64,000 nt of DNA. Source: Clostridium sp. MB40-C1. GTDB lineage: Bacteria; Bacillota; Clostridia; Clostridiales; Clostridiaceae. The notes beneath the pieces are model-generated. The model worked only from the letters and a program-made list of their open reading frames with translations. It ran no database searches and had not been told where the DNA came from. Position numbers and translations under genes: made by a program. Every line of letters begins with the position of its first letter. The first letter of the stretch is position 1. The stretch is from NCBI RefSeq assembly GCF_030913655.1, contig NZ_CP133189.1, positions 3,310,501 to 3,374,500 on the forward strand, given 5' to 3'. Shown piece by piece: positions 1,850-28,032 of the stretch.

Positions 1850-2101
1850 TTATGTATCCCCCCTGTAAATATTACAAAATATATAATAAAATAATTATAG
1901 CATGAATAAAGAAAATACAAGATAAATATTCAGTAAATTTTCATTATTATAATTTTTTTTGCGATTTAACGTGTATACAGTTGTAATTACAGTTTTTTTT
2001 AATATCATATTAGTATATAATTAATGTAGGGTTTATTTTTTATATAAACTAATTATAAAGTTAAGCCTTAGTATTTTATAGTTAATATAAGGGTGATAAA
2101 T

Positions 2102-3679
2102 ATGAAAAATTTTATTAGGCTCGAAATAATTACAAGAGACAGAATTGGAATGACATTAGATATAGTAGCTCAAATATATAAATTCAATATAAACGTACAT
2201 TCATTAGAAGTATTTCCTAAAAAAGTTTGTGTAAAGGTAGAAGAAATAAATAAAGATATAAAGCAATATTTAAGTGAGTCTTTATATAGTTTGGAAGGAG
2301 TTATTAGTGTAAAAGAAGTAGGGCTATTACAACAGGAAAAGAATGAAAGAAAAATTCTTGCAACAATAGATTCTGTTGATGAGGGTATAATGGCTATAAA
2401 TAATAAATTAGAAGTAGAAATTTTTAATAGCTATTGTGAAAAAATTTTTAGATGTAAAAGAGAAGATATAATTGGAAGCGATATAAATAATTTTTTAAGC
2501 ATAAATGCGCCAATGATAACTTTGCTTAAAACAGGTGAAAAGTATGATAATGTTGAAATTAACATAAAGGGTGATGGAGGAGAGGGAGATATACATTATC
2601 TTACAACAGGTAGACCGGTTAAGGATGATAACAATAAAACTATTGGTGTTGTTGCTTCAATAAAAGATATTAAGCAAGCGATAGAGATTGCTAATATAGT
2701 TTCTTCTACTGAAGCAGGGGCTTTTAATGAAGTTATAGGTAATAGTTTTCCAATGGAAAGAGCAAAAAAATTATGTGCCTCTGTAGCTAAAAGCAATTCT
2801 ACAATCCTTCTAAGAGGCGAGAGTGGTACTGGTAAAGAAGTGTTTGCTAAAGCAATACAAAAACTCAGTGAGAGAAAAGATAAAAACTTTGTTACTATAA
2901 ACTGTGCTGCACTTCCTGATAATTTAATAGAAAGTGAATTGTTTGGTTATGAAAAAGGAAGTTTTACTGGAGCAAATGTATTGGGAAAAGAAGGACTTTT
3001 TAAAGAGGCTGATGGTGGAACTCTATTCTTAGATGAAATAGGAGAAGTATCGCTAGTGCTTCAAGCGAAATTACTTAGAGTTCTTCAAGAAGGGGTTATT
3101 AGAAAAATAGGAAGTAATAAAGAGGAAAAGGTGGATGTTAGGATAATTGCAGCTACTAATAGAAATTTAGAAGAAATGATTAAAAGAGAAGAGTTTAGAG
3201 AAGATTTGTATTATAGATTAAACGTAATACCTATATTCATACCTCCGTTAAGAGAAAGGCTTGAAGATATACCTAATTTAGTGAGTTTCTTTATAAATAA
3301 ATTAAATAAAAGATTAAATAAAAATATTTTAGGGGCAGAAATAGAATTTATAAATGCATTAATGGAATATAATTGGCCTGGTAATGTAAGAGAATTAGAA
3401 AATGTAATAGAACGAGCTATGAATTTATGTTTTAATAATTTATTAAAATTAGAACATTTAATAATTGATTTTAAAGGCTATAATAAGCCAAGTGTTCAAA
3501 ACTTTGAATTAGATGGGGATATGAAATTAAAGGATGTAGTGGAGATATGTGAAAAAGAGGCAATAATAAAAGCACTAGAAAAGTATAAAAGTTGTCGTAA
3601 AGCTGCAAAAGTTTTAGGAGTATCCCATACTACTATAATAAATAAAACAAAAAAGTATAATATAAATTGTAAAATATAA
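2102..3679 (+). CDS. TyrR-like sigma-54-dependent transcriptional activator (ACT-PAS-AAA+-HTH)
   Basis: Enhancer-binding protein that remodels sigma-54 RNA polymerase. In order it has an N-terminal ACT domain (about 1-75, amino-acid binding in this fold), a PAS domain (about 80-190), and a sigma-54 AAA+ domain with Walker A GESGTGKE, the sigma-54 contact loop as GSFTGA (usual GAFTGA) and Walker B-type LFLDEIGE. A TyrR/Fis-type C-terminal helix-turn-helix follows ([18 protein letters not shown]). The start ATG at 2102 has AAGGG 8 bases upstream; an in-frame GTG at 2093 is less well placed. The gene lies just upstream of the -24/-12 promoter of the first methionine gamma-lyase, which makes it the obvious regulator of both lyase copies. 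An ACT-sensed amino acid such as methionine is an inference. Confidence 0.92.
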
Positions 3680-3948: not shown

Positions 3949-5157
3949 ATGAATAGAGAACATATGGAAAAAATGGGAGTAGCAACACAAGCAATACATG
4001 GTGGACATGTAGGAGATAAACAATTTGGATCATTAGCAACTCCTATATTCCAAACTTCTACATTTATCTTTGATTCAGCAGAACAAGGTGGAAAAAGATT
4101 TGCATTAGAAGAACCAGGATATATATATGGAAGACTTGGAAACCCAACAGCTACTGAACTTGAAGAAAAACTTGCTTTATTAGAAGGAGCAGAAGCTGCA
4201 GTAGTTACATCATCTGGTATAGGTGCTATATCTTCATCATTATGGACAGCATTAAAAGCTGGAGATCATGTAGTTGCATCTGATACACTTTATGGATGTA
4301 CTTTCGCATTATTAAGCCACGGACTTACTAAATTTGGTGTAGAAGTTACATTTGTAGACATAACTAACCTTGAAGAAGTTAAAAAAGCTATGAAACCAAA
4401 TACTAGAGTAGTATATTTAGAAACTCCTGCTAACCCAACATTAAAAATTACAGACATAGAAGCTGTTTCTAAAATGGCTCATGAAAACAACAAAGATTGT
4501 TTAGTATTTGTTGATAATACATTCAATACTCCATACATCCAAAAACCATTAGAATTAGGTGCTGATGTTGTTCTTCACTCAGGAACTAAATACTTAAATG
4601 GACATGGAGATGTTATAGTAGGATTTGCAGCAGGTAAAGCAGACTTTATAACTCAAGTTAAATTAGTTGGAGTTAAAGATTTAACAGGAGCAGTTTGCAG
4701 CCCTATGAATGCTTATTTAGTAATCAGAGGAATGAAAACTTTAGAAGTAAGAATGGAAAAACATAGTGCAAATGCTATGAAAGTTGCTGAATTCTTAGAA
4801 GCTCATCCAGCAGTTGAAAAAGTATACTATCCAGGACTTAAGAGTTTTGAACAATATGATTTAGCTAAAAAACAAATGAGATTACCAGGTGGTATGATAT
4901 CTTTCGAAATTAAAGGCGGAGTAAATGACGGAAGAACTGTTATGAATAATGTTAAATTAGCTTCATTAGCAGTAAGCTTAGGAGATACTGAAACATTAAT
5001 TCAACATCCAGCTTCAATGACACACTCTCCATACACTGCAGAAGAAAGAGCAGCAGTAGGAATAAGCGATGGATTAATAAGATTATCTGTTGGTCTTGAA
5101 GATGCTGAAGATATAATCGCTGATTTAAAACAAGCTTTAGATTTAATAGTTAAATAA
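3949..5157 (+). CDS. mgl: methionine gamma-lyase (copy 1)
   Basis: PLP enzyme (402 residues) that splits methionine into methanethiol, 2-oxobutyrate and ammonia. It belongs to the Cys/Met-metabolism PLP family. Visible residues are the PLP lysine K214 in SGTKYLNGH, the active-site Y60 and R62 of YGRLGNPT, Y115, and C117 in LYGCTF. This cysteine is diagnostic of true methionine gamma-lyases, equivalent to C116 of the Pseudomonas putida enzyme. The KDLTGAV motif is also typical. The ATG has an AGGAGAGG ribosome binding site. The second copy differs at 14 of 402 residues. The lyase/transporter pairing and sigma-54 control point to inducible methionine fermentation. Confidence 0.95.
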
Positions 5158-5191
5158 TAAGATTTCATATATATTTAAATATTTTTTAAAT

Positions 5192-5233
5192 AGAAATCAA
5201 TTATAAAAGGAAATCCTTTTATAATTGATTTCT
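5192..5233 (+). terminator. 19-bp perfect hairpin between mgl and the NhaC-family gene
   Basis: Perfect 19-bp inverted repeat with a 4-base loop (AAAT), 34 bp after the lyase stop. No U-run follows, so it is more likely an RNA-stabilising or processing hairpin, or a partial terminator separating lyase and transporter expression, than a strong intrinsic terminator. Confidence 0.55.
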
Positions 5234-5308
5234 GTAGTTTATGAGAAAAATAAGAATATTTAAAACAAGAGACTAAATTTATTAAAATTAAGGGAGGACA
5301 AAAGATTA

Positions 5309-6673
5309 ATGAGCTCGAAAAAAAAGACGAATAGTATTATTGCTTTAATGCCTTTTGTAGTATTTATTGGAGTATATCTTGGAAGTGGACTTATACTACA
5401 AGCAAAAGGAGTTGAGATGGCGTTCTATCAATTTCCTGCACCAGTTGCTGTATTTATGGGTGTTATTTCAGCATTTATAATACTTAAAGGTTCAATAGAA
5501 GAAAAATTTGAAACATTTATAGATGGTTGTGGAAACTCAGATATAATTATAATGTGTATAATTTATCTATTAGCTGGAGCTTTTGCCGCAGTGTCTAAAG
5601 CGATGGGTGGAGTTGATTCTACTGTTAATTTAGGATTAACTTATATACCAGCACAATATATTATGGCTGGATTATTTATAATATCAGGATTTATATCTTT
5701 AGCAACAGGAACTTCTGTAGGAGCAATAGCTGCATTAGGACCTATAGCTGTAGGAGTTGCTACAAAAGCAGGATTATCAATGCCACTTACTATGGCTTCT
5801 GTATTAGGTGGAGCTATGTTTGGAGATAATTTATCTATAATATCAGATACAACTATTGCATCTACTAGAACGCAAGGTTGTGATATGAGGGATAAATTTA
5901 GAGTAAATGTTTACTTATCTATACCACCTGCTATTATAACAATAATATTATTACTTGTATTTGGAAAACCTACATCTATCACAACTTTACAAGCATGTGA
6001 TTTTAATATTGTAAAAGTATTGCCATATTTATTTGTATTAGTATTGGCTTTAATGGGAGCAAATGTATTTGCAGTTTTAACTGGAGGAATATTCTTATCA
6101 GGAGCAATTGGCCTATTTTATGGTGATTTGACTATAATGAGTCTTGCGAAAAATGTATTTTTAGGATTTACAAGTATGACTGATATATTCTTATTATCAA
6201 TGCTTACCGGTGGGCTTGCTGAACTGGTGACTAAGGCTGGTGGACTAGAATGTTTGTTAAATGGAATTCAAAAAATGGTGAAAGGCAGAAAATCAGCAGA
6301 ACTTGGAATAGCTGCACTTGTTTCATTAACTGATGCTGCTGTAGCAAATAATACTGTTGCTATAATTATAAATGGTTCAATAGCTAAAGAGTTATGTTAT
6401 AAATTTAAAGTTGATCCAAGAAAAAGTGCTGCTATATTAAGTACATACTCTTGCATAATTCAAGGATTTATACCATATGGAGCTCAAATGCTAGTTCTTA
6501 CAAGTTTTGCTAAAGGAGCAGTATCACCAATGCAGATAATTCCATTGGTATGGTTCCAGGAGTTACTTTTAGTAAGTGCAATAATAGCTACTTTTGTGCC
6601 ATTTGCAGATGGTTTCCTTAAGAAACATCCTTGGAATTGGGAAAAGGGAGAAGCAGAATCAGAAGTTGCTTAA
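5309..6673 (+). CDS. NhaC-family transporter (copy 1), probable methionine uptake
   Basis: Polytopic membrane protein of 454 residues with about 11-12 hydrophobic segments, in the Na+/H+ antiporter NhaC / ion-transporter superfamily. Conserved stretches include GNSDIIIMC, the glycine-rich TGTSVGAIAALGP, GAMFGDNLSIISDTT and SLTDAAVANNTVAI. The ATG has an AGGGAGGA ribosome binding site. Some members of this superfamily (the MetT type) are genetically linked to methionine uptake. Its placement behind methionine gamma-lyase, repeated in the second pair, supports import of methionine or export of a degradation product rather than plain sodium/proton exchange. Family assignment is firm; substrate is inferred. 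Confidence 0.85.
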   Translation: MSSKKKTNSIIALMPFVVFIGVYLGSGLILQAKGVEMAFYQFPAPVAVFMGVISAFIILKGSIEEKFETFIDGCGNSDIIIMCIIYLLAGAFAAVSKAMGGVDSTVNLGLTYIPAQYIMAGLFIISGFISLATGTSVGAIAALGPIAVGVATKAGLSMPLTMASVLGGAMFGDNLSIISDTTIASTRTQGCDMRDKFRVNVYLSIPPAIITIILLLVFGKPTSITTLQACDFNIVKVLPYLFVLVLALMGANVFAVLTGGIFLSGAIGLFYGDLTIMSLAKNVFLGFTSMTDIFLLSMLTGGLAELVTKAGGLECLLNGIQKMVKGRKSAELGIAALVSLTDAAVANNTVAIIINGSIAKELCYKFKVDPRKSAAILSTYSCIIQGFIPYGAQMLVLTSFAKGAVSPMQIIPLVWFQELLLVSAIIATFVPFADGFLKKHPWNWEKGEAESEVA

Positions 6674-6787
6674 TTTTAATAATATTTATTTCAAAACGGA
6701 ACAAAGATTTAAGAATTAGACAGTTTTAAGATAGAGTACAACTAATTATTCAAAAATTTTATTACAAATTATTCTTAAATTTAATAT

Positions 6788-6837
6788 AATGGCAAATTAA
6801 ATTTACATTTGGAAGTGTAATTTGCCATTATTTTATT
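6788..6837 (+). terminator. terminator after NhaC-family copy 1
   Basis: AATGGCAAATT / AATTTGCCATT form an 11-bp stem with a partly paired inner loop, followed by ATTTTATT. It separates the first lyase/transporter pair from the second promoter. Confidence 0.75.
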
Positions 6838-6841
6838 AAAT

Positions 6842-6861
6842 GTGGTTGTAAATGTTTACAC
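6842..6861 (+). promoter_or_regulatory. activator site before the second lyase promoter
   Basis: GTGGTTGTAAATGTTTACAC is palindromic (TGTAAA-TG-TTTACA core). It matches site 4 at 3760-3779 over most of its length and shares GTGG and TTTACAC with site 3 at 3727-3746. It ends 61 bp upstream of the -24 element. Only one clear site is present here, against four at copy 1. Confidence 0.5.
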
Positions 6862-6921
6862 AAGAATAATTACATATCTTAAAAGCGCATAAAATGACGA
6901 TTTATGAGTAAACGTTTAAAT

Positions 6922-6937
6922 TGGCACGCTAATTGCT
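6922..6937 (+). promoter_or_regulatory. sigma-54 (-24/-12) promoter of methionine gamma-lyase copy 2
   Basis: TGGCACGCTAATTGCT is a full match to TGGCAC-N5-TTGCW, with GG (6923-6924) and GC (6935-6936) ten bases apart. It lies 73 bp before the second lyase start codon, almost the same distance as at copy 1. Confidence 0.9.
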
Positions 6938-7009
6938 GTATAAAGTAATGTAAGGAATGCTAAAATATAATAGAACATTAAATAGATTAATTAAAAGGAG
7001 AGGTATAGA

Positions 7010-8218
7010 ATGAACAGAGAGCATATTGAAAAAATGGGAGTAGCAACACAAGCAATACATGGTGGACATGTAGGAGATAAACAATTTGGATCATTAGCAA
7101 CTCCTATATTCCAAACTTCTACATTTATTTTTGATTCAGCAGAACAAGGTGGAAGAAGATTTGCTTTAGAAGAATCAGGATATATATATGGAAGACTTGG
7201 AAACCCAACAGCTACTGAACTTGAAGAAAAACTTGCTTTATTAGAAGGAGCAGAAGCTGCAGTAGTTACATCATCTGGTATGGGAGCTATATCTTCAGCA
7301 TTATGGACAGCATTAAAAGCTGGAGATCATATAGTTGCATCTGATACACTTTATGGATGTACTTTCGCATTATTAAGTCATGGACTTACTAAATTTGGTA
7401 TAGAAGTTTCATTTGTAGATATAACTAACCTTGAAGAAGTTAAAAAAGCTATGAAACCAAATACTAGAATAGTATATTTAGAAACTCCTGCTAATCCAAC
7501 ATTAAAAATTACAGATATAGAAGCTGTTTCTAAAATGGCTCATGAAAACAACAAAGATTGTTTAGTATTTGTTGATAATACATTCAATACTCCATACATT
7601 CAAAAACCATTAGAATTAGGTGCGGATGTTGTTGTTCATTCAGGAACTAAATACTTAAATGGACATGGAGATGTTATAGTAGGATTTGTAGCAGGTAAAG
7701 CAGATTTCATAACTCAAGTTAAATTAGTTGGAGTTAAAGATTTAACAGGAGCAGTTTGTAGCCCTATGAATGCTTATTTAGTAATCAGAGGAATGAAAAC
7801 TTTAGAAGTAAGAATGGAAAAACATAGTGCAAATGCTATGAAAGTTGCTGAATTCTTAGAAGCTCATCCAGCAGTTGATAAAGTATACTATCCAGGACTT
7901 AAGAGCTTTGAACAATATGATTTAGCTAAAAAACAAATGAAATTACCAGGTGGTATGATATCTTTCGAAATTAAAGGTGGAGTAGATGACGGAAGAACTG
8001 TTATGAATAATGTTAAATTAGCTTCATTAGCAGTAAGCTTAGGAGATACTGAAACATTAATTCAACATCCAGCTTCAATGACACACTCTCCATACACTGC
8101 AGAAGAAAGAGCAGCAGTAGGAATAAGCGATGGATTAATAAGATTATCTGTTGGTCTTGAAGATGCTGAAGATATAATCGCTGATTTAAAACAAGCTTTA
8201 GATTTAATAGTTAAATAA
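7010..8218 (+). CDS. mgl: methionine gamma-lyase (copy 2)
   Basis: Second 402-residue PLP-dependent methionine gamma-lyase with the same reaction and the same key residues as copy 1: K214, Y60, R62, Y115 and C117. The 14 amino-acid differences are nearly all conservative (I/V, R/K, D/E) and none touches the listed active-site residues. DNA identity with copy 1 is very high across the coding region and the last 28 or so bases before ATG. It collapses immediately after the stop codon. The ribosome binding site is AGGAGAGG. It has its own sigma-54 promoter and is followed by a second NhaC-family gene. The tight limits of similarity suggest gene conversion or purifying selection after a tandem duplication. 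Confidence 0.95.
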
Positions 8219-8264
8219 TAAATTTAATATATAAACTACCCATATTAAGAATTAATAATATATA

Positions 8265-8287
8265 TTGGGGGGGATATCCCCCCCCAA
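8265..8287 (+). terminator. G7/C8 hairpin after mgl copy 2
   Basis: TTGGGGGGG pairs with CCCCCCCCAA around an ATAT loop, an exceptionally GC-rich stem for this genome. It is followed by an A-run rather than a U-run, so it may stabilise the lyase mRNA end rather than terminate transcription. Confidence 0.5.
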
Positions 8288-8456
8288 AAAATATCCTTAT
8301 TTACCAGTAAAAAATAAATTCATTTTTGTATTATAATATTGAAAAAAAATATATTTAATTTATAATAAGTATTAAGATCAGGTCCATACCATGAAAACCT
8401 TTTCGAATGTGAACTAATTAATTTCATACTATTTATAATCAAGAGGAGGAAAAATA

Positions 8457-9818
8457 ATGAGTGATAACCAAAGTAAAGTAAAAGCTAATGGAATTGCCCT
8501 CATACCTTTTTTAGTTTTTGTAGGTATTTATCTTGGCGCAGGACTTGTGTTACAAGCAAAAGGCACTAAAATGGCCTTTTACCAATTACCAGCACCAGTA
8601 GCTGCATTCTGTGGTATTATAATAGCTTTCTTTTTATTAAAGGGAACAATAAATGAAAAATTTGAATCTTTTGTAGAAGGTTGTGGAAACTCAGATATAA
8701 TTATAATGTGTATAATTTATCTATTAGCGGGTGCTTTTGCTACTGTATCTAATGCTATGGGTGGTGTTGATTCTACTGTTAACTTAGGATTAACTTATAT
8801 ACCAGCACAGTATATAACAGCAGGTTTATTTGTTATTGCATGTTTTATATCATTATCAACAGGAACTTCTGTAGGTGCTATTACTGCATTAGGACCTATA
8901 GCTGTAGGAGTTGCTACAAAAGCAGGGTTATCATTGCCTCTTACTTTGGCAGCTGTATGTGGTGGTGCTATGTTTGGAGATAACTTATCTGTAATATCTG
9001 ATACAACAATAGCTGCTACAAGGACTCAAGGCTGTGAAATGAGAGACAAGTTTAGACTTAATATATTTATAGCTTTACCAGCTGCAGTAATAACAGTAGT
9101 TTTACTTCTTATTTTTGGTCATCCAACTACTATACCAGCAATGCAAACTTATGATTTTACTTTAATAAAAGTTTTACCATATATATTTGTTTTAGTTTTA
9201 GCATTAGCTGGAATAAACGTTTTTGCGGTATTAACTGGTGGTATAATTCTTTCAGGTATTATAGGTCTTTCTTATGGAAATTTAACAGTTTTAACATTTT
9301 CACAACAAATATTTGAAGGTTTCAAAGGAATGATAGATATCTTCATCTTGTCAATGCTTACTGGTGGACTTGCTAATATGGTTACCAAAGCAGGTGGAAT
9401 TCAGTTCTTATTAAACGGAATTCAAAAAATGATAAAGGGAAGAAAATCTGCAGAAATAGGTATTGCTGCATTAGTTTCTTTAACTGATGCTGCTGTAGCA
9501 AACAACACAGTTGCTATAATAATAAACGGACCTATAGCTAAAGAAATTTGTGAAACATACAAAGTAGATCCACGTAGAAGTGCATCTTTACTAGATACGT
9601 TCTCTTGTATATTCCAAGGACTTATTCCTTATGGAGCTCAAATGCTTATTTTAACAAGCTTTGCTAAGGGAGCTATATCACCTATGCAAGTTATTCCATT
9701 ATTATGGTATCAACAATTACTAGCAGTATCTGCTATATTGTCAATATTTATTCCATTTGCTGATGGTGTAATTAGAAAAGAACCTTGGAATTGGGAAAAG
9801 GGAGAATCTGTACAATAA
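8457..9818 (+). CDS. NhaC-family transporter (copy 2), probable methionine uptake
   Basis: A 453-residue paralogue of the 5309-6673 transporter, with the same membrane topology and conserved blocks (GNSDIIIMC, GTSVGAITALGP, GAMFGDNLSVISDTT, LTDAAVANNTVAI). By eye it is only about 70-75 per cent identical to copy 1, much less than the two lyases are to each other. Differences are concentrated in the loops and the mid-protein segment. The ATG has AGAGGAGG 8 bases upstream. Because only one of the two genes in each pair has diverged, the two carriers may differ in affinity or substrate while the lyases are kept the same. That is inference. Confidence 0.85.
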   Translation: MSDNQSKVKANGIALIPFLVFVGIYLGAGLVLQAKGTKMAFYQLPAPVAAFCGIIIAFFLLKGTINEKFESFVEGCGNSDIIIMCIIYLLAGAFATVSNAMGGVDSTVNLGLTYIPAQYITAGLFVIACFISLSTGTSVGAITALGPIAVGVATKAGLSLPLTLAAVCGGAMFGDNLSVISDTTIAATRTQGCEMRDKFRLNIFIALPAAVITVVLLLIFGHPTTIPAMQTYDFTLIKVLPYIFVLVLALAGINVFAVLTGGIILSGIIGLSYGNLTVLTFSQQIFEGFKGMIDIFILSMLTGGLANMVTKAGGIQFLLNGIQKMIKGRKSAEIGIAALVSLTDAAVANNTVAIIINGPIAKEICETYKVDPRRSASLLDTFSCIFQGLIPYGAQMLILTSFAKGAISPMQVIPLLWYQQLLAVSAILSIFIPFADGVIRKEPWNWEKGESVQ

Positions 9819-25357: not shown

Positions 25358-25537
25358 ATAATTTACCTCGTTTACATACTAAAGATTTAACTATATACTT
25401 AATTTATATCCATATGTTTGTGAAGATATTACACATATGGGTCTGTAATATAAATATTAACAAAAAGTAAAAAATACTGTATAATATTTAATAAAAATAA
25501 TTAATTAATAATAATTTTAATTTAGGGGAGGGTTACA

Positions 25538-27337
25538 ATGAAAGGGACAGTAGTTGCTACTTGGATTAAAACTTGTAGGAAACTTTATAATGATGATGTT
25601 GTAGACAGAGCTATGAGCTCTATTGGATGGAAAAATAGTAAGATATTTAGTCCAATAGAAAATGTTGATGATGATGATGTAAAAAAGGTAATGTCATATA
25701 TATCAAATGATGTAAATGTTAGTTTAGGTCAATTGTGGAGAAATATAGGAAAAGATAATATACAGTCGTTTTTTAATGATTTTCCTTCATTTTTTGAGCA
25801 TGAGAATTTATACTCATTTCTTAGATCTTTATATGATATTCATTTAGAGATGGTGAAAAAATTTCCAGGAGCAAAACCACCATTAATAAGCATAGAACCA
25901 ATATCAGATAGAAAAGCTATTTTTACATATAAATCAAATAGAGAAATGTTTGATTATGCTTTTGGACTTATTGACGGAAGCGCAGAGTTTTTCAAGGAGA
26001 AATTGAACATAAAAGAGATAGAAAGAAAATCAGGATTTTTAAAACTCGAATTTAACTTTGAAAAAGACATTTATTATAAAAAAGTTTATAATTTTAACAA
26101 ATTATTATCTTTCGGTTTTGTAAAGAGTATTCCTGCAAAAGTTGGAATATTTACAATAATAATATCAATTATTAGTAATATATTTTTAATAGGAGTAAAA
26201 AATATTCCGGTATTTTTATTAGCAACTATAATTCCTCCAGTAGCATCTGCTTTAGCAGTATCTTTGCTTATGAGACCTAAGGATTTAATAAAAGAAGAAA
26301 TAAAAATAATTAATGATAACAATTATACAGAAGAAAAGAGAATAGTTACAGGAGACTTTTTTGAAGATATATTTGAACTTTTAAAAGAACATAGGAATGT
26401 AATTAGAGCTGATTTTACAAATTTTAAAGGTGTTACAGATGAAATGAATACATTTGTAGCAAATATTAACAACATATCTGATTCTATGAAAGCAACTTCA
26501 GAAGATATTTCTGGAGTAGTGGAACAGATGGCAGATGGAGCTGTAAGTCAAGCCGAAATGACTCAAGAAGCGGCTTCTGCATTAAATAATAATGTTGAAA
26601 CTTTAAAAAATATTGTAGATAGTGAAAACAACAATAAAGAGGAGCTTGAAAAAGCTGTTCATAAGATCAATAACAGTTATGAAAATGTAGAAAACTCAAG
26701 TAAGAATATTTTTGAAACTTTACAAAAATTCCAAGAGGTAAAGAATAAAGGAATAGAATTAGAAGAAAAGGCTAAAAATATTAATAATATAGTTTCTATA
26801 GTTTCTGGAATCTCTGAGCAAACAAATCTTTTGGCTTTAAATGCGTCTATTGAGGCTGCTCGTGCAGGAGAAGCAGGAAGAGGATTTACTGTTGTAGCTG
26901 AGGAAGTAAGAGAACTTGCAGAGGAAACACAAAATGCCGTTAAAGATATAAATCAAAATTTAGCAGAGTTTGTAAGTGAAATAAAGCTTTTGGTAGAGAA
27001 AATAGGAAATCAATATAATGTATTAGAAAATGAGACAATAAGTTTAGAAAAGGTTAGAGATATAAGCTTAGATGCAGCTAATTCTATTCAAGAAGTATCT
27101 TCCACAATGATAAAAACGATCAATGATTTAGATAAGGAATCAGGATATATTCTAAAAATTTCTGATAATATTGAATCTTTATCAGCTATTGCAGAAGAAA
27201 ATTCTGCATCTTCAGAAGAAGTAAGCGCTAGTGTATCAAGTTATACTAGTGAAATAAAAAATTTAATAGGAAATATATCTAATTTCAAGAAAACAACTGA
27301 AGAATTTAAAAATGAACTTAGCAAGTACAAAATTTAA
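25538..27337 (+). CDS. H-NOX heme sensor fused to methyl-accepting chemotaxis domain
   Basis: Chemoreceptor of 599 residues with a cytoplasmic heme nitric-oxide/oxygen-binding domain (1-185), two transmembrane segments (about 205-248), and a signalling domain with the tip [19 protein letters not shown]. Proximal heme ligand H102 (YDIHLEM), P115 and the Y131-x-S133-x-R135 heme-propionate motif (YKSNR) are all present. The distal pocket residues W9, N74 and Y140 are also present, at the same numbers as in the O2-binding Caldanaerobacter Tar4 H-NOX. Known relatives are the clostridial SONO sensors. It would steer cells away from oxygen or nitric oxide. The ATG has an AGGGGAGGG ribosome binding site. 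The next gene starts 35 bp downstream. Confidence 0.95.
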
Positions 27338-27372: not shown

Positions 27373-28032
27373 ATGCAACGTGAGTGGGAAGAAAGTGATT
27401 ATCAAGTACGAAGTATTATAAAAAAAGGTATCTTAATGGCTACTATTCCTGTTACAAGCATCTTATACCCAACGTTAAATGTATATAGAGAAGATATAAA
27501 TGTTATGAAAATGCCTATAGATAATATTATTTCATTTAATAAGTATTTTGTTATACCATATGTAGGATGGTATGCCTATATATTCTTCTTCTTGCTTTTG
27601 CTTTGTATATTAGATTCTGATGAATATTTTAAATTATTAATAGCTTTAAATATAGGATTATTAATTTGCTATGTAATTTATTATTTTTATCCTACCTATG
27701 TTGCAAGACCTACTATTGAAGATAAAGATATTTTTAGTAGATTAGTGCTATGGGTATATGGAAGAGATAATCCTTATAATTGTATGCCAAGTATACATGT
27801 CTTAAATTCTATGCTAGTTTTGTTGTTTGTAAATAATTCTAGTAAGATTAGCTCGTTTTTTAAGATGACAACAGATATAATAACTATTTTAATAAGTTTG
27901 TCTACTATGTTTATAAAACAGCACTACTTTATAGATGTTATCGTATCTATAGGATTATCATTAGCATTATTTTATTCAATAAATTGGATATGGGCATTTA
28001 TTAAAGATAAGAATGAAAAGGTAAAAATTTAA
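27373..28032 (+). CDS. PAP2-family membrane protein
   Basis: Membrane protein of 219 residues with about five hydrophobic segments. The phosphatase core shows CMPSIHVLNS (the PSxxH motif) and KQHYFIDVI (HxxxD). The first PAP2 motif, KxxxxxxRP, is represented by VARPTIED. Such proteins remove phosphate from lipid phosphates or act as inositol-phosphotransferase-like enzymes. It follows the H-NOX chemoreceptor by 35 bp with its own CAGGAGGG ribosome binding site, so the two are probably co-transcribed. A functional link between a heme sensor and a lipid phosphatase is not known to me. Confidence 0.8.
   Translation: MQREWEESDYQVRSIIKKGILMATIPVTSILYPTLNVYREDINVMKMPIDNIISFNKYFVIPYVGWYAYIFFFLLLLCILDSDEYFKLLIALNIGLLICYVIYYFYPTYVARPTIEDKDIFSRLVLWVYGRDNPYNCMPSIHVLNSMLVLLFVNNSSKISSFFKMTTDIITILISLSTMFIKQHYFIDVIVSIGLSLALFYSINWIWAFIKDKNEKVKI

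What the first reader, a model, noticed from the sequence alone, without database searches (positions are those of the whole stretch)
25538..27337. H-NOX chemoreceptor with every residue of an oxygen-ligating distal pocket
Counting from Met1, W9, N74, H102, P115, Y131, S133, R135 and Y140 fall at exactly the numbers known for the Caldanaerobacter (Thermoanaerobacter) Tar4 H-NOX. W9-N74-Y140 is the hydrogen-bond network that lets that protein bind O2. Many other bacterial H-NOX proteins lack Tyr140 and bind only NO. A strict anaerobe with an O2-competent heme chemoreceptor would have a direct oxygen-avoidance sensor.
Basis: partly seen in the sequence, partly recalled or inferred. Interest (0 to 1): 0.7.

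Follow-up and report, generated by a model that had tools for sequence, protein, structure and literature searches.

The report
Ordinary clostridial H-NOX oxygen/NO chemoreceptor

Summary
The ORF at 25538-27337 (+), 599 aa, is an H-NOX domain (HNOB, residues 2-159, E 2.7e-46), a hydrophobic stretch (about 194-246) and an MCP signalling domain (387-569). W9, N74, H102, P115, Y131, S133, R135 and Y140 sit at those numbers, and the alignment to the solved Caldanaerobacter H-NOX is gap-free through residue 163.

The set is not special. In a class-wide sample 38 of 391 genomes (own genome included) carry an HNOB match. Position 140 was readable in 37 of the 38 and is Tyr in all 37; N74 is present in all 37. 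That Tyr-bearing, MCP-fused H-NOX proteins of obligate anaerobes bind O2 and likely serve oxygen-directed chemotaxis is in print (PMC8738867, PMC9814294; passages read). A Clostridium H-NOX with the same residues nearest the ligand binds O2 about 1,200 times more weakly than the Caldanaerobacter one (53 uM against 44 nM; PMC7356049, passage), so these residues suggest O2 competence but do not set affinity or function; NO remains a possible physiological ligand.

Verdict: new member of a known kind, low interest. O2 avoidance here is reasonable but untested.

The parts
25538..27337 (+). H-NOX/MCP fusion chemoreceptor, 599 aa, ATG start
   Evidence: ORF, translation, Pfam
25541..26014 (+). H-NOX (haem NO/O2-binding) domain, residues 2-159; carries W9, N74, H102 (proximal haem ligand, role recalled), P115, Y131-S133-R135 (haem propionate contacts, role recalled), Y140
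   Evidence: HNOB E 2.7e-46; gap-free match to 1xbn/1u4h through residue 163; residues checked
26117..26275 (+). hydrophobic stretch, residues about 194-246, read as two membrane helices with a short loop
   Evidence: Kyte-Doolittle 19-residue windows above 1.6; number of helices is inference
26696..27244 (+). MCP signalling domain, residues 387-569
   Evidence: MCPsignal E 1.2e-31
25457..25485 (+). possible sigma-70-type promoter (TTAACA-17-TATAAT, 11 of 12)
   Evidence: consensus scan; 18 sites found against 19.4 expected in shuffles, so not evidence by itself
27373..28032 (+). PAP2-superfamily membrane protein starting 35 bases after the receptor stop codon; possible operon partner, role unknown
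   Evidence: Pfam PAP2_3 E 3.8e-11; adjacency also in L002 and, by coordinates, G005

Best explanation
A membrane-anchored chemoreceptor with an N-terminal cytoplasmic H-NOX domain that binds b-type haem through His102. Its Trp9-Asn74-Tyr140 triad lets the ferrous haem bind O2 as well as NO and CO. Ligand binding changes haem and domain geometry, is passed through a short membrane segment to the MCP domain, and changes CheA activity, most likely steering the cell away from O2. It is a clostridial relative, probably an orthologue, of the Caldanaerobacter H-NOX/MCP (Tar4, name recalled) and of the C. botulinum H-NOX. Shown here: the sequence, the domains, gap-free homology to a solved O2-binding relative, the pocket residues, and CheA, flagellin and MCP domains in the genome. 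Inferred: haem binding, O2 binding, membrane topology, signalling and direction of taxis. My estimates: the domain binds O2 measurably, about 0.85; O2 is the main physiological ligand, about 0.55. The overall figure below is for the first two sentences and the family placement.
For: HNOB and MCPsignal domains; solved-structure homologue, gap-free through residue 163; triad present and kept in relatives; 36 MCPsignal stretches above cut-off, 2 CheA dimerisation domains and 7 flagellin domains in the genome; published O2 binding by Tyr-bearing H-NOX of obligate anaerobes (passages: PMC8738867; PMC9814294; PMC7356049).
Against: The H-NOX domain is only 38% identical to the Caldanaerobacter one. 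A Clostridium homologue binds O2 about 1,200 times more weakly (PMC7356049). The title of Nioche 2004, seen only in a reference list, names the C. botulinum protein an NO sensor of femtomolar sensitivity. I saw no in vivo O2-taxis test of such a receptor in the listings. No structure prediction could be run. NCBIfam gave no family above its cut-off for this protein.
Confidence: 0.8

Rival explanations
1. It is mainly an NO chemoreceptor: O2 can bind in vitro but weakly, and the ligand that matters in the cell is NO, bound extremely tightly.
For: C. botulinum H-NOX with the same residues nearest the ligand has KD(O2) 53 uM (PMC7356049, passage) and is called a femtomolar NO sensor in a title seen in a reference list. 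The genome has two Prismane-family matches; that family includes hybrid-cluster proteins tied to NO stress but also CO dehydrogenases (recalled; not separated here).
Against: The distal Tyr described as requisite for O2 binding is kept in 37 of 37 readable genomes of the class sample; facultative anaerobes whose H-NOX proteins exclude O2 belong to the other group (PMC8738867).
Confidence: 0.3
2. The receptor senses O2 as an attractant, or as one input among several, rather than as a repellent.
For: The sign of the response cannot be read from sequence; the genome has 36 MCPsignal stretches above cut-off and two hemerythrin-family matches that could also deal with O2.
Against: The clostridial setting makes avoidance the simpler expectation (inference).
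Confidence: 0.12

Closest known systems
Caldanaerobacter subterraneus subsp. tengcongensis H-NOX/MCP (Tar4, name recalled; PDB 1u4h, 1xbn)
   Same: H-NOX fused to MCP (PMC9814294); W9, N74, H102, P115, Y131, S133, R135, Y140; no gap through residue 163
   Different: 38% identity in the domain; the window protein has V5, L98, I101 where that protein has I5, M98, V101
Clostridium botulinum H-NOX (SONO, name recalled)
   Same: Clostridium H-NOX with a distal Tyr, described as O2-binding (PMC7356049)
   Different: Its sequence was not compared here; its O2 affinity is about 1,200 times lower than the Caldanaerobacter protein's (PMC7356049)
Clostridium brassicae H-NOX/MCP (L002)
   Same: 96% identity in the H-NOX domain, same length of 599 aa, same neighbouring genes on both sides
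   Different: No difference of note seen at the positions tabulated
H-NOX of facultative anaerobes (Vibrio, Shewanella)
   Same: Members of the H-NOX family (PMC9814294, PMC8738867)
   Different: Do not form a stable O2 complex (PMC9814294); genes usually next to histidine kinases or diguanylate cyclase/phosphodiesterase enzymes (PMC8738867)

Membership tests
H-NOX (Pfam HNOB, PF07700) | Match to the curated profile above cut-off over the whole domain | tested here: met
   157.9 bits against 25.5, profile 1-162 of 163
H-NOX (Pfam HNOB, PF07700) | Proximal His102, P115 and Y-x-S-x-R haem motif (definition recalled) | tested here: met
   H102, P115, Y131-S133-R135
H-NOX (Pfam HNOB, PF07700) | Binds haem | not testable with these tools
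   Needs purified protein
O2-binding H-NOX subfamily of obligate anaerobes | Distal Tyr140, with Trp9 and Asn74 | tested here: met
   W9, N74, Y140; gap-free alignment to a solved O2-binding relative through residue 163
O2-binding H-NOX subfamily of obligate anaerobes | Membrane-bound and fused to an MCP domain (PMC8738867) | tested here: met
   MCPsignal 387-569; hydrophobic 194-246; actual membrane insertion not tested
O2-binding H-NOX subfamily of obligate anaerobes | Stable ferrous-oxy complex | not testable with these tools
   Needs spectroscopy; nearest residues do not set the affinity (PMC7356049)
O2-binding H-NOX subfamily of obligate anaerobes | Tyr140 points into the distal pocket in three dimensions | not tested
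   Structure prediction was not accepted and I did not try again; only the sequence alignment supports it

The most novel reading that the evidence does not exclude
The paired change M98 to L and V101 to I, beside His102, found together in only 4 of 41 distinct clostridial loci including this one, may retune O2 against NO affinity from the proximal side while the distal pocket stays fixed.
Probability: 0.07. Interest if true: 0.35.

Novelty: new member of a known kind. Interest (0 to 1): 0.12.

Why it matters
It shows that the W9-N74-Y140 pocket is the default in the clostridial H-NOX proteins sampled, so its presence in one genome is not a discovery. The open question, whether these receptors steer anaerobes away from O2 or respond to NO, belongs to the whole family and could be tested in this or many relatives.

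Tried and rejected
Considered that the matching numbers might be chance or misalignment: rejected by the gap-free homology. Considered a linked partner gene: the downstream PAP2 protein is adjacent here, in C. brassicae (L002; the same contig as G003 by length and coordinates) and in G005 (by coordinates), so 3 of 6 H-NOX carriers in the genus sample show it and the other 3 (G002, G004, G007) do not. G001 has a 58% identical homologue but no H-NOX match, so no functional link is claimed. The promoter and terminator scan gave nothing above shuffled expectation. The NCBIfam scan gave 13 matches for this protein, all listed far below their cut-offs. The first residue table was wrong for loci held on the minus strand, which were not turned; it was replaced, and only its L009 row is still used. 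The primary paper on O2 binding by C. botulinum H-NOX is not held; its values are taken from a passage of PMC7356049.

Full report
Observation. The ORF at 25538-27337 on the + strand has an ATG start, GGGGAGGG ending 5 bases before it, and 599 codons before the stop. Pfam finds HNOB at residues 2-159 (E 2.7e-46) and MCPsignal at 387-569 (E 1.2e-31); a third match, ATG17_like, is below its cut-off. NCBIfam gives no family above its cut-off. Residues about 194-246 are strongly hydrophobic. The best solved relatives are the H-NOX chains 1xbn and 1u4h (E about 1e-47), aligned with no gap through residue 163. Equal numbering is therefore homology and not coincidence.

Baseline. To see whether the pocket is unusual I searched for HNOB in other genomes. 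In the genus sample 6 of 8 genomes, own genome included, have a match. In the class sample 38 of 391, own genome included, have one. The 30 best-scoring of those 38 were read; I then fetched the remaining 8 (nine stretches) so that weaker matches were not left out. Position 140 was readable in 37 of the 38 genomes and is Tyr in 37 of 37; N74 is present in 37 of 37; His102 is present in 36 of 37, the exception being L051 (G369), where the position falls in an alignment gap. The genome not readable at 140 is G231, a fragment with an internal TAG. Trp9 was readable in all 38 genomes and is Trp in 38 of 38, one of them (G175) on a separate short contig. Across the 41 distinct loci (43 rows; L011 and L023 dropped as copies of L002 and L003; the window's own L001 included; L002-L010 chosen by similarity to the window), N74, H102, P115, Y131, S133, R135 and Y140 are each 41 of 41. 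W9 is 40 of 41 there; in the remaining one, L009, the start lies in another frame and shows Trp at that place.

Fusion. A text pattern for the MCP hairpin was found in 38 of 43 rows of the set. Of the five misses, L019 and L017 end in MCP-like C-terminal sequence, L006 runs into the contig end, and L013 and L036 have shortened open frames. Among the nine stretches a pattern for the same hairpin was found in five (L045-L049); L044 is cut by the contig end, L050-L052 have short open frames.

Setting. The window lies in a 3.89-Mb single-contig genome; the window has 28.8% G+C. The genome has one HNOB match. The nearest named locus is Clostridium brassicae, 96% identical in the H-NOX domain, with the same neighbours on both sides. 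The genome has 36 MCPsignal stretches above cut-off among 39 listed, two of the 36 with internal stops, two CheA dimerisation domains and seven flagellin N-terminal domains, so a chemotaxis pathway is likely present for the receptor to feed. It also has two hemerythrin-family and two Prismane-family matches, which do not decide between O2 and NO.

Literature. [quoted passage not shown] PMC9814294 (passages) says an O2-sensing role was proposed for the Caldanaerobacter protein, that it is not yet demonstrated in correlation with living conditions, and that it should allow metabolic adaptation or O2 avoidance. PMC7356049 (passages) reports that the C. [quoted passage not shown] A passage of PMC9592903 adds that putting a distal Tyr into full-length soluble guanylate cyclase gave no O2 binding, again showing that the Tyr alone does not decide. 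The original study of C. botulinum H-NOX (doi 10.1021/acs.biochem.5b00994) is not held; I saw only its title in reference lists. Four searches (6, 20 of 25, 5 and 15 papers listed) showed no paper that I recognised from its title and the start of its abstract as an in vivo O2-taxis test of such a receptor; I did not read them through, and most subscription papers are not held.

Conclusion. The protein is a new member of a known kind. The two steps that go beyond the evidence are the strength and selectivity of O2 binding, which the distal residues do not fix, and the behavioural role. One small feature that separates this protein from most relatives is L98 with I101 next to His102, found together in L001, L002, L014 and L040, 4 of 41 distinct loci; its effect is unknown.

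Noticed in passing
window 3949-9818: A two-gene cassette present twice in tandem: Cys/Met PLP-dependent enzyme (402 aa each) then Na+/H+ antiporter-family protein (454 and 453 aa), next to a sigma-54 activator at 2093-3679.
   Followed up: no
window 27373-28032: PAP2-superfamily membrane protein starting 35 bases after the receptor gene; adjacency seen in 3 of 6 H-NOX carriers of the genus sample, but a homologue also occurs in G001, which has no H-NOX match.
   Followed up: partly
L051 (G369): An H-NOX with Trp9, Asn74 and Tyr140 kept but an alignment gap at the proximal His102; open frame of 199 aa in a draft genome.
   Followed up: no
L052 (G231): A truncated H-NOX remnant (75-aa open frame, internal TAG) inside a 106-kb contig of a 99% complete genome; possibly a lost receptor.
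   Followed up: no
window 25829-25840 (residues 98 to 101): L98 and I101 replace M98 and V101 beside the proximal His; the pair occurs in 4 of 41 distinct loci.
   Followed up: partly
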